Below, piece after piece: positions 8,256 to 35,965 of a stretch of DNA of 64,000 nt. The notes under the pieces are model-generated. The model did not search any database. It was not told where the DNA came from and saw only the letters and a list, made by a program, of their open reading frames with translations. Positions within the stretch are counted from its first letter, which is position 1, and the number at the start of each line of letters is the position of its first letter. This DNA is from Hypericibacter adhaerens. Its GTDB lineage: Bacteria > Pseudomonadota > Alphaproteobacteria > Dongiales > Dongiaceae. The DNA lies in contig NZ_CP042582.1 in NCBI RefSeq assembly GCF_008728835.1, positions 5,005,001 through 5,069,000 on the forward strand, in the 5' to 3' direction. The translations under genes were made by a program, and so were the position numbers.

Positions 8256-8274
8256 CCCTCCCCCGGCATGGGAG
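8256..8274. repeat. Left fragment of a paired-hairpin repeat split by the IS110 element
   Basis: CCCTCCCCCGGCATGGGAG matches the hairpin arm of intact repeats at 24147-24281 and 29240-29372. The remainder of the same copy continues on the other side of the IS at 9414. Removing the IS restores a contiguous arm whose length matches the intact copies. Confidence 0.7.
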
Positions 8275-8291
8275 AGCGACTGTGTTGCCAG

Positions 8292-9530
<1,239 letters not shown>

Positions 9531-30129: not shown

Positions 30130-30206
30130 GCTTTCCTCCGCGCGGCAGGGAGAGAAATCGCTCTCCCTGCCTTTCCATCGATGAGCGCTGTTTCAGGCGC
30201 CCTGCG

Positions 30207-30701
30207 TCAGGAGGCGACGCGCCAGCTGCCATCGGGCTCGCGGCAGGCCGTGCCATGCGCCGTCTCCGGACGACCGTTGACGATGATCGTCGTCTGGTAT
30301 TCGCGGCAGTACTGGCCGCTCGGCTGCTGATAGGTCTGCTGCGGCACGGTGTAGCCGTAATTGCCGTTGTTCGGGTTGTTCCAGCGCGAATACTGGCCGT
30401 CGGGGTAGCGCTCGAGCGCCACCTGCTCCGCCTGGTAGGCCGACTGGCGGTCCGCCTGGTCGAGGCCGCGGCCGATCTGGTTGCCGATGAAGCCGCCGAT
30501 GACCACGCCGGCCGCGGTCGCGATGAGCTGACCCGTGCCGTGGCCGATATTCGAGCCGGCCCAGCCGCCGAGCGCGGCACCGCCCAGCGTGCCGATCGTC
30601 TCCTTCGAGCCGAGGCCGGTACCGCCATAGCCGCTCGCGCAGGCGCTCAGCGTCGAGGCGAGCAGGACGGCGGCGGTGATCTTCTTGAGGTTCGTGTTCA
30701 T
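30207..30701 (-). CDS. Glycine-zipper outer-membrane lipoprotein (17-kDa surface antigen-like)
   Basis: 164-aa lipoprotein. The signal peptide ends in a lipobox (LASTLSAC, Cys20), then a glycine-zipper 2TM segment at about 35-75 (IGTLGGAALGGWAGSNIGHG, VVIGGFIGNQIGRGLDQAD). A Tyr/Asn-rich C-terminal part follows with two Cys (GQYCREYQTTIIVNG, HGTACREPDGSW). The pattern is that of Rickettsia 17-kDa antigen-like proteins. Start ATG at 30701 follows AAGGAGCTCGATC. Tandem TGAACG sites 118-134 bp upstream match those at the PepSY promoter, so it is a candidate target of the neighbouring response regulator. Confidence 0.88.
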   Translation of the reverse strand: MNTNLKKITAAVLLASTLSACASGYGGTGLGSKETIGTLGGAALGGWAGSNIGHGTGQLIATAAGVVIGGFIGNQIGRGLDQADRQSAYQAEQVALERYPDGQYSRWNNPNNGNYGYTVPQQTYQQPSGQYCREYQTTIIVNGRPETAHGTACREPDGSWRVAS

Positions 30702-30818
30702 GATCGAGCTCCTTCTCCATCGAAAGCGGGAGCTGCGACGGGCATCGCTCAACTCGAATCGCCCCTGCAGCATGGAACGCAGTCTGCCGGGGTCAGACTG
30801 AACCCACTCTGAGGGCGC

Positions 30819-30835: not shown

Positions 30836-30890
30836 GGATTGGAGGGACGGGAGAGTGGTGGATAAGGGGCTGATCGGATTGTCGATTTTC

Positions 30891-31016
30891 TCTTCCTCTC
30901 CTCCCGCTTGCGGGAGGAGAGGGCAGGGTGAGGAGGGTGGTGAAGCTCGTGGCGCTTCATCCTGAGAGGCCCCCCTCACCCTACCCTCTCCCCCATTTCA
31001 TGGGGGCGAGGAAGAG
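30891..31016. repeat. Paired-hairpin dispersed repeat, copy 3 (variant)
   Basis: CTCTCCTCCCGC TT GCGGGAGGAGAG, a middle segment, CCCCCCTCACCCTACCCTCT, and a closing hairpin CCCCCATTTCATGGGGG. It contains TACCCTCTCCC (30982-30992), nearly identical to the target of the IS110 element. It lies between the sensor kinase stop and the lipoprotein promoter. Confidence 0.7.
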
Positions 31017-31024
31017 ATCTGCCC

Positions 31025-32359
31025 TTACGTCGACGGCAGCGTGAGAATCGCGCGCAAGCCGCCCAGCGGCGAATCCTCGAGTGCCACCGTGCCGTCATAG
31101 AGCTCGGCGATCTCGCGCACGATGGCGAGGCCGTGCCCCGTGCCCGGCACGCGCTCGTCGAGCCGCTTGCCACGATGGAACACCGCGTCGCGCTGCTCGG
31201 GCCGCAGGCCGGGCCCGTCATCGTCGACGGTGAAGCGGATGCGGTTGCCCTCCTGCCGCCCCGCGACGAGAACGCGGGTCTTCGCCCATTTGCAGGCGTT
31301 GTCGGCGAGATTCCCCAGCATCTCCTCGAGATCCTGGCGCTCGCCGCGGAAGCCCAGGCCCGCGGGAACATCCGCCTCGATGCGGACCGGGCGGTCGCGA
31401 TGGATGCGCTCGAGCGTGCGGCGCAGATCCTCGGCGACGGGCGCGCATTCCGTCCGCACGCCCAGGACCTTCGCCGCCGCGGCCGTTCGCGCGCGGGCGA
31501 GATAGTGATCGATCTGCTGGCGCATCGAGGCGGTCTGGCGCTTGACCGTCTCGGCCAGCGGCCCCTCGGCGGTGCTGGATTCGTTGGTCAAGACCGAGAG
31601 CGGCGTCTTCAGCGCATGGGCGAGATTGCTCACCTGGGTGCGGGCGCGCTCGAGCACGGCGGCGTTGTGCTCGATCAGCACGTTGAGCTCGTCCGAGAGC
31701 GGCGTGATCTCGGCCGGGAACTGGCCGTCGAGCCGCTGCGCGCGCCCCGTCCGCACCGCGATCACCGCCCGGCGCATGCGCCGCAGCGGCTGGAGGCCGA
31801 ACCAGATCTGGATCAGCATCGCCACGATCAAGCCCAGCCACAGCAGGCCCAGCGACCAGAACAGCGTCGCGTTGAAGCTGTGCACCGCCGCGTCGATCTC
31901 GCTGGTCTCGCCGGCGACGCCGAAGCGGAAGCGATGGGTAGAGCCGGGCAGCGTGATCTCGCGCTCCACCAGCCGCAGCTTCTCGTCGTCGGGGCCGGTC
32001 ACGTCGTGGCTGAAGGCCTCGGTCGTGGCGGGCTCGCGGCTCAGGCTCAGATCCTGATCCCAGAGCGAGCGCGAGCGCAGCAGCGGCTTGCCATCCTCGG
32101 CGATCTCCCAGTACCACCCTGAATAGGGTTGATCGAAGCGCGGCTCGCCGACGCTGCGCGTCAATTGCGGCTGGCCTTGCGCGTCGAGCTCCGCGACCGC
32201 GACCAGGCCTTCGAGCAGCACCACGAGGCGGGAATCGAAATTGCGCTCGACCGTGTCCTCGAACAGGCGCGAGAGCGCGAAGCCGCCGGCGAGCAGCGCC
32301 ACCGCGATCCAGACGCCGGCGCCGACCAGAAGGCGCAGCGCCAGCGAGCGCGCGGCCAT
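31025..32359 (-). CDS. PhoQ-like sensor histidine kinase
   Basis: 444-aa membrane kinase. Two spans (about 8-28 and 170-190) flank a periplasmic sensor of about 140 aa, with YSGWYWEIAEDGKPLLRSRSLWD. HAMP is followed by the phosphoacceptor His in SNLAHALKTPLSVL (near residue 248). The HATPase has LGNLADNACKWAK, DDDGPGL and GTGHGLAIV. The sensor and HAMP pattern is that of the PhoQ-like, envelope- and cation-sensing subgroup. It starts directly after the response regulator stop (TAGATG), so the two are translationally linked. Function: phosphorylates the adjacent OmpR-family regulator. The signal is unknown, but the neighbouring PepSY proteins point to the envelope. Confidence 0.93.
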   Translation of the reverse strand: MAARSLALRLLVGAGVWIAVALLAGGFALSRLFEDTVERNFDSRLVVLLEGLVAVAELDAQGQPQLTRSVGEPRFDQPYSGWYWEIAEDGKPLLRSRSLWDQDLSLSREPATTEAFSHDVTGPDDEKLRLVEREITLPGSTHRFRFGVAGETSEIDAAVHSFNATLFWSLGLLWLGLIVAMLIQIWFGLQPLRRMRRAVIAVRTGRAQRLDGQFPAEITPLSDELNVLIEHNAAVLERARTQVSNLAHALKTPLSVLTNESSTAEGPLAETVKRQTASMRQQIDHYLARARTAAAAKVLGVRTECAPVAEDLRRTLERIHRDRPVRIEADVPAGLGFRGERQDLEEMLGNLADNACKWAKTRVLVAGRQEGNRIRFTVDDDGPGLRPEQRDAVFHRGKRLDERVPGTGHGLAIVREIAELYDGTVALEDSPLGGLRAILTLPST

Positions 32360-35527: not shown

Positions 35528-35965
35528 TCAGCCGGCTACCGCATTGACGACAGCGACGCCCGCGGCGCGGTGCTCGGCAAGCCTCGCTTGCTGTTGGCGC
35601 GCGGCCTCCGTCTCGCTCAGGCTCCACGCCAGCAGCGTGATTTCGAATCCTTCCATCTCGTGCTTCAACAGCCACTCGACGAGTTGCACGTGCTCGGCGG
35701 CTCGTTTGACGGTTGTGCGCTTGCCTGGCAGGGTCACCAGATCGGGCGCCTCACGCCCCTTCCAGGCGTAGATGAAAACCTCTCCCGTGGGCCGGTGTGT
35801 GATCTCGCCGATCGACATTTCACCCCAGATGCCGGCCGCCTGCCGCGCCGCCTCGTCGTTCAAGCGCAAGGCACGCAGCCGGTCGATCTTACTGCGTTGG
35901 TCCGCTTCGGCAGGGCTCGCCGTGCGCCCGCTGCGTGAATTCCGCGCCATATTCTGCTCCGTCAT
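35528..35965 (-). CDS. Hypothetical protein
   Basis: 145 aa, no signal or membrane segment. N-terminal third is basic and polar (NSRSGRTASPAEADQRSKID). It is followed by a helix (RLNDEAARQAAGIWG), a short beta segment (EVFIYAWKG) and long helices (TVKRAAEHVQLVEWLLKHEM, LSETEAARQQQARLAEHRA). I do not recognise a family. Start ATG at 35965. It is upstream of the desaturase in the same direction with a 133-bp gap. The composition fits a real gene, but support is limited to frame and codon use. Confidence 0.5.
   Translation of the reverse strand: MTEQNMARNSRSGRTASPAEADQRSKIDRLRALRLNDEAARQAAGIWGEMSIGEITHRPTGEVFIYAWKGREAPDLVTLPGKRTTVKRAAEHVQLVEWLLKHEMEGFEITLLAWSLSETEAARQQQARLAEHRAAGVAVVNAVAG

What the first reader, a model, noticed from the sequence alone, without database searches (positions are those of the whole stretch)
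30982..30992. Predicted unoccupied target for the same IS110 element in repeat copy 3
TACCCTCTCCC at 30982-30992 matches the target-loop guides at 10 of 11 positions around a CT core (30986-30987), better than the other intact repeats in the window, which read ACCCTCCCCC. The repeat family therefore seems to supply safe extragenic landing sites, and single-base differences among copies should decide which are used.
Basis: inference. Interest (0 to 1): 0.6.

Follow-up and report, generated by a model that had tools for sequence, protein, structure and literature searches.

The report
Empty landing site for RNA-guided transposon
A short stretch inside a repeated palindrome matches, at 10 of 11 bases, the RNA guide of a jumping gene whose six genome copies all sit in such repeats; it is a believable empty landing site, but 12 other empty sites read exactly the same and the principle is already known.

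Summary
TACCCTCTCCC lies at 30982-30992, with the CT core at 30986-30987, in an intergenic palindromic repeat pair. The window's IS110 element (8277-9413, minus strand) has a readable bridge RNA whose target-loop guides specify (C)AACC-CT-CTCCC. The genome holds six identical copies, all in the same repeat family and the same register. Two of them have flanks with exactly the finding's 11-mer.

Genome-wide counts support guide-dependent choice. Perfect matches are occupied at 3 of 4 sites, single-mismatch sites at 3 of 151 (Fisher P = 1.3e-4). The finding's own 11-mer class is 2 occupied and 13 empty, so this site is one of 13 equivalent empty targets. The best empty target is elsewhere (genome 1846592-1846602). 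One copy sits in AACC-CT-CCCCC, so the match is a preference, not a requirement.

Guide and target change together in five unrelated relatives. The only same-genus genome held lacks this transposase and lacks the repeat pair at this locus, but shows empty repeats at two of three occupied loci tested.

This is a new member of a known kind: IS621, ISPpu9, ISPpu10 and ISPa11 already show IS110-family elements landing in REP repeats. The modest extra is a natural, genome-wide occupancy test of guide matching.

The parts
30982..30992 (+). Candidate target TACC-CT-CTCCC of element A (one guide mismatch, first base); empty
   Evidence: identical 11-mer flanks copies L001 and L004
30986..30987 (+). 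CT core dinucleotide of the candidate target
   Evidence: register set by the six insertion junctions
30970..31018 (+). Second half of the extragenic palindromic repeat pair, holding the target
   Evidence: same half-repeat at 11 or more other empty sites; hairpin fold
30890..30937 (+). First, inverted half of the repeat pair
31025..32359 (-). Histidine kinase gene ending just beyond the repeat; the candidate core lies 38 bp from its stop codon
30193..30720 (-). Next ORF on the other side of the intergenic region (no Pfam match)
   Evidence: both neighbours conserved in G001
8277..9413 (-). Element A, IS110-type insertion sequence, 1137 bp counting one CT core
   Evidence: boundaries from six copies
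8292..9215 (-). Transposase gene of element A (likely start ATG at 9215; the open frame runs on to 9386)
   Evidence: PF01548 and PF02371 above cut-off; translation
9233..9413 (-). Left-end non-coding region with the predicted bridge RNA
9302..9370 (-). Target-binding stem-loop of the bridge RNA
9345..9351 (-). Left target guide CAACCCT
9321..9327 (-). Right target guide GGGAGAG (complement of CTCTCCC)
9280..9286 (-). Left donor guide ACAGTCG, equal to the element's right end
   Evidence: sequence; conserved across relatives
9247..9252 (-). Right donor guide GCAAGG, pairs with the CTTGT left end
   Evidence: sequence; conserved across relatives
9412..9417 (-). Occupied target of the window copy, left part AACC plus CT
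8270..8276 (-). Occupied target of the window copy, right part CT plus CTCCC

Best explanation
30982-30992 is an empty, one-mismatch target of the IS110-type element present in six identical copies in this genome. The element's circular form would be joined at a CT core by its DEDD/serine transposase. A bridge RNA encoded in the left end would select the site: its left guide (C)AACCCU pairs with the bottom strand left of the core, and its right guide GGGAGAG pairs with the top strand CTCTCCC. The repeat family supplies well over 100 near-matching sites between genes. Base differences at guide-contacting positions grade how often a copy is used. Shown here: junctions, register, guides, covarying RNA structure, guide/target covariation, occupancy gradient and empty orthologous repeats. 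Inferred: transcription, RNA binding, activity today, and future use of this particular site.
For: Six copies at identical register in the repeat. Consensus RNA with two stem/internal-loop/hairpin units, 13 of 29 pairs with compensatory change in four diverse relatives. Guides match their own target best in all seven elements compared. Occupancy: perfect 3/4; TACC-CT-CTCCC 2/15; G or C in the first place 0/13; AACC-CT-CCCCC 1/29; two-mismatch classes 0/69. Perfect versus single mismatch P = 1.3e-4, or 6.6e-5 without L004 and 1.5e-3 without L004 and L005. G001 has no element A but carries the orthologous empty repeats, with a CT core, at L005 and L006.
Against: Only six insertions, so the gradient rests on small numbers; perfect versus TACC-CT-CTCCC alone is P = 0.037. 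One copy (L002) sits in AACC-CT-CCCCC. Thirteen empty sites share the finding's 11-mer. The original core bases of an occupied site cannot be read, because the element brings its own CT; at L004 the partner arm of the palindrome suggests CC. No expression or activity data.
Confidence: 0.85

Rival explanations
1. The element recognises the palindrome's structure (hairpin) rather than a guide-matched sequence, so all repeat copies are equivalent and the 11-mer is incidental.
For: All six copies are in the palindromes; the repeats fold into strong hairpins.
Against: Over 120 empty sites of the type ACCCTCYCCC with poorer guide match stand against three used ones, while 3 of 4 perfect ones are used. 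Relatives 42-59% identical in transposase use unlike targets that match their own guides.
Confidence: 0.08
2. The match at 30982 is a chance similarity without functional meaning.
For: A 10/11 match is expected about once per 64 kb of this composition.
Against: It is at the homologous position of the occupied repeat, and the identical 11-mer is occupied at two other loci.
Confidence: 0.05
3. Matching flanks reflect retention rather than choice: the element lands broadly in repeats but remains or spreads only from copies whose flanks still pair with the guides.
For: ISEc21 minicircle formation depends on the flanking target bases (PMC11187229), so flanks matter for leaving too.
Against: The six copies are identical inside, so recent, with little time for filtering. 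Orthologous empty sites already had the CT core.
Confidence: 0.12

Closest known systems
IS621 (IS110 family, E. coli) and its bridge RNA
   Same: CT core, left-end bridge RNA with target and donor loops, targets inside REP elements, 11-bp target, graded mismatch tolerance including a commonly used single mismatch (PMC11208160).
   Different: Different guides and target; here about five left-side and five right-side non-core positions match, as in relatives with a longer right guide. The evidence here is natural copies only.
ISPpu9 / ISPpu10 of Pseudomonas putida and ISPa11
   Same: All copies at one position of a REP; ISPpu9 and ISPpu10 are dissimilar elements sharing one REP target with 2-bp direct repeats (PMC1525189).
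   Different: Here the two elements use the repeat in different registers. The host genome has no Y1_Tnp (REP-associated transposase) match.
seekRNA-guided ISEc21 (IS110 type)
   Same: Upstream non-coding RNA with matches to both target strands (PMC11187229).
   Different: ISEc21 targets a site inside another transposase gene, not extragenic repeats.

Membership tests
IS110-family insertion sequence (IS110 group) | DEDD N-terminal domain plus C-terminal Transposase_20 domain | tested here: met
   PF01548 91.3 bits and PF02371 75.3 bits, both over cut-off
IS110-family insertion sequence (IS110 group) | Non-coding region upstream of the transposase that encodes a two-loop bridge RNA | tested here: met
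   Fold and covariation, 13 of 29 pairs with compensatory changes
IS110-family insertion sequence (IS110 group) | Two target guides and two donor guides matching target and element ends | tested here: met
   Target guides tested against other elements' targets; donor guides read from sequence and conserved
IS110-family insertion sequence (IS110 group) | Insertion at a short shared core without further target duplication | tested here: met
   CT at both ends only; orthologous empty repeats in G001
IS110-family insertion sequence (IS110 group) | Circular intermediate and RNA-dependent recombination | not testable with these tools
   needs experiment
REP (repetitive extragenic palindrome) | Many copies, extragenic, palindromic, paired in inverted orientation | tested here: met
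REP (repetitive extragenic palindrome) | Associated REP-type Y1 transposase (RAYT) in the genome | tested here: not met
   PF01797 gives no match in G000, while the control search rings in E. coli and others; so 'REP-like' is safer

The most novel reading that the evidence does not exclude
Two IS110 elements with transposases 37% identical have been separately programmed onto one extragenic repeat family with cores offset by two bases (AACC-CT-CTCCC and AACCCY-CT-CCCG). They would compete for and exclude one another at the same copies, so single-base variation among repeats would set which element may land where.
Probability: 0.3. Interest if true: 0.45.

Novelty: new member of a known kind. 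Interest (0 to 1): 0.3.

Why it matters
It gives a natural, countable test of bridge-RNA target choice. One genome has about 150 sites within one mismatch of the guides and six recent insertions, so mismatch tolerance can be read from occupancy and compared with the laboratory data on IS621. For this single site the value is small: it is one of 13 equivalent empty copies.

Tried and rejected
A first boundary script failed because loci were in genome orientation (repaired). Rfam found no family over its threshold in the element or the window. A free search for guide pairs over all CT positions gives many spurious scores of 12-13.5, so the test was redone with junctions fixed by the element ends and with swapped and random targets. 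The wider family (17 genomes) and the named genome collection held no close relative of the element (best full-length matches 54-59% identity), so strain-level comparison at 30982 was not possible. The only same-genus genome lacks the repeat pair there.

Full report
OBSERVATION. The 11-mer TACCCTCTCCC is at 30982-30992 with CT at 30986-30987. It lies in the second half of an inverted pair of palindromic repeats (30890-30937 and 30970-31018) in the roughly 300-bp space between a histidine kinase gene (31025-32359, minus) and an ORF without a Pfam match (30193-30720, minus). As a bare 10/11 match it is unremarkable: two in the window against 1.02 expected by shuffling. Its repeat context carries the meaning.

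THE ELEMENT. The genome (5.87 Mb, one contig) holds six copies of the window's IS110 element, called A here, and eight of a second IS110 element, B. The six A copies do not differ from one another inside the element; all differences lie in the last bases next to the junction, which belong to the target. The element runs from CT-TGTATCTAG to ACACAGTCG, 1137 bp counting one CT. In the window it is 8277-9413, minus strand. The transposase carries both IS110 domains. The open frame of 364 aa probably starts at its inner ATG (9215), because the upstream part overlaps the RNA region (inference).

THE GUIDES. The left-end region folds into a long stem enclosing an internal loop with CAACCCUCU on its 5' side and GUGGGAGAG on its 3' side, followed by a second stem-loop. 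Aligned with the left ends of relatives from Leptolyngbya, Nitrospira and Ktedonobacterales, the consensus has two such units, and 13 of 29 pairs show compensatory changes. The second loop (CCGAACAGTCGCC ... CCGTATC.GCAAG) is conserved, as expected of a donor loop; the target guides vary. In all seven elements compared (A, B, Roseibium, Ktedonobacterales, Leptolyngbya, Nitrospira, Cellvibrionaceae) an element's own RNA matches its own target better than any other RNA does, 13-14 of 14 against at most 12. At most 4 of 2000 random targets do as well. This argues that A's site is chosen through these guides.

OCCUPIED SITES. The joined flanks of the six copies read TACC-CT-CTCCC (L001, L004), AACC-CT-CTCCC (L003, L005 = window copy, L006) and AACC-CT-CCCCC (L002). 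So the finding's 11-mer is exactly the flank sequence of two copies. All six lie outside plausible coding ORFs (for L002 the overlapping stop-to-stop frame has its likely ATG downstream of the site, my reading).

EMPTY SITES. Exact pattern scans of the genome give these empty counts: AACCCTCTCCC 1 (1846592-1846602, minus); TACCCTCTCCC 13, including this finding; G/CACCCTCTCCC 13; AACCCTCCCCC 28; TACCCTCCCCC 8; G/CACCCTCCCCC 61. All 13 TACCCTCTCCC sites are in the repeats by their context. All sites at one mismatch from the guide 11-mer number 148. Occupancy is therefore 3/4 for perfect matches and 3/151 for single mismatches, P = 1.3e-4. The two mismatches that are used are T in the first position (2/15) and C in the eighth (1/29). 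All other single mismatches are 0/107.

Two cautions. The core of an occupied site cannot be read, because the element brings its own CT. At L004 the opposite arm of the palindrome suggests that the copy had CC there. Dropping L004 leaves P = 6.6e-5; dropping L004 and L005 leaves P = 1.5e-3. The step from perfect to the finding's class is weaker, P = 0.037.

RELATED GENOMES. One other genome of the genus is held (G001). It has no match to the element A transposase. At the finding's locus both neighbouring genes are conserved at 82-83% identity, but the intergenic space is about 100 bp shorter and has no repeat pair. At copy L006 it has the empty repeat with AGCC-CT-CTCCC; at copy L005 (the window copy) an empty repeat with TGCC-CT-CCCCC; at L003 no such repeat. 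The repeats are therefore older than the insertions at two loci, and the repeats themselves turn over between species.

VERDICT. The predicted target is plausible and the general inference, that base differences among repeats grade their use, is supported. The site is not exceptional, and CCCTCTCCC is not strictly required. IS110 elements choosing REP sequences, guided by a bridge RNA, with a frequently used single mismatch, are established for IS621 (PMC11208160). ISPpu9, ISPpu10 and ISPa11 were shown in REPs in 2006 (PMC1525189). I file it as a new member of a known kind.

Noticed in passing
L007-L014 (genome copies of a second IS110 element, not in the window): A second IS110 element (transposase 37% identical, eight copies) sits in the same repeats with the core two bases further on (AACCCC/T-CT-CCCG); its left-end RNA has matching guides. 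Copies L007, L012 and L014 share flanking sequence and may not be independent insertions.
   Followed up: partly
L184:71-216 (G001, orthologous to the window copy's site): In the related genome the orthologous repeat is interrupted by a 146-bp sequence with inverted ends TGCAGGA.TGTCCGGGGAA, flanked on both sides by GCTTTTG-like bases; it looks like a small non-autonomous transposon in a repeat hairpin.
   Followed up: no
L018 (genome 970778-970788, minus) beside copy L001: An empty TACCCTCTCCC lies in the same inverted repeat pair as an occupied identical site, a natural side-by-side control.
   Followed up: no
window 35776-35786: AAACCTCTCCC, also 10/11 with a CT core, outside the repeats and empty; expected by chance about once per window.
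   Followed up: no
whole genome G000: Well over 100 palindromic repeat sites but no match to the Y1 transposase family (PF01797) that often accompanies REPs, so what spreads these repeats is unknown.
   Followed up: partly
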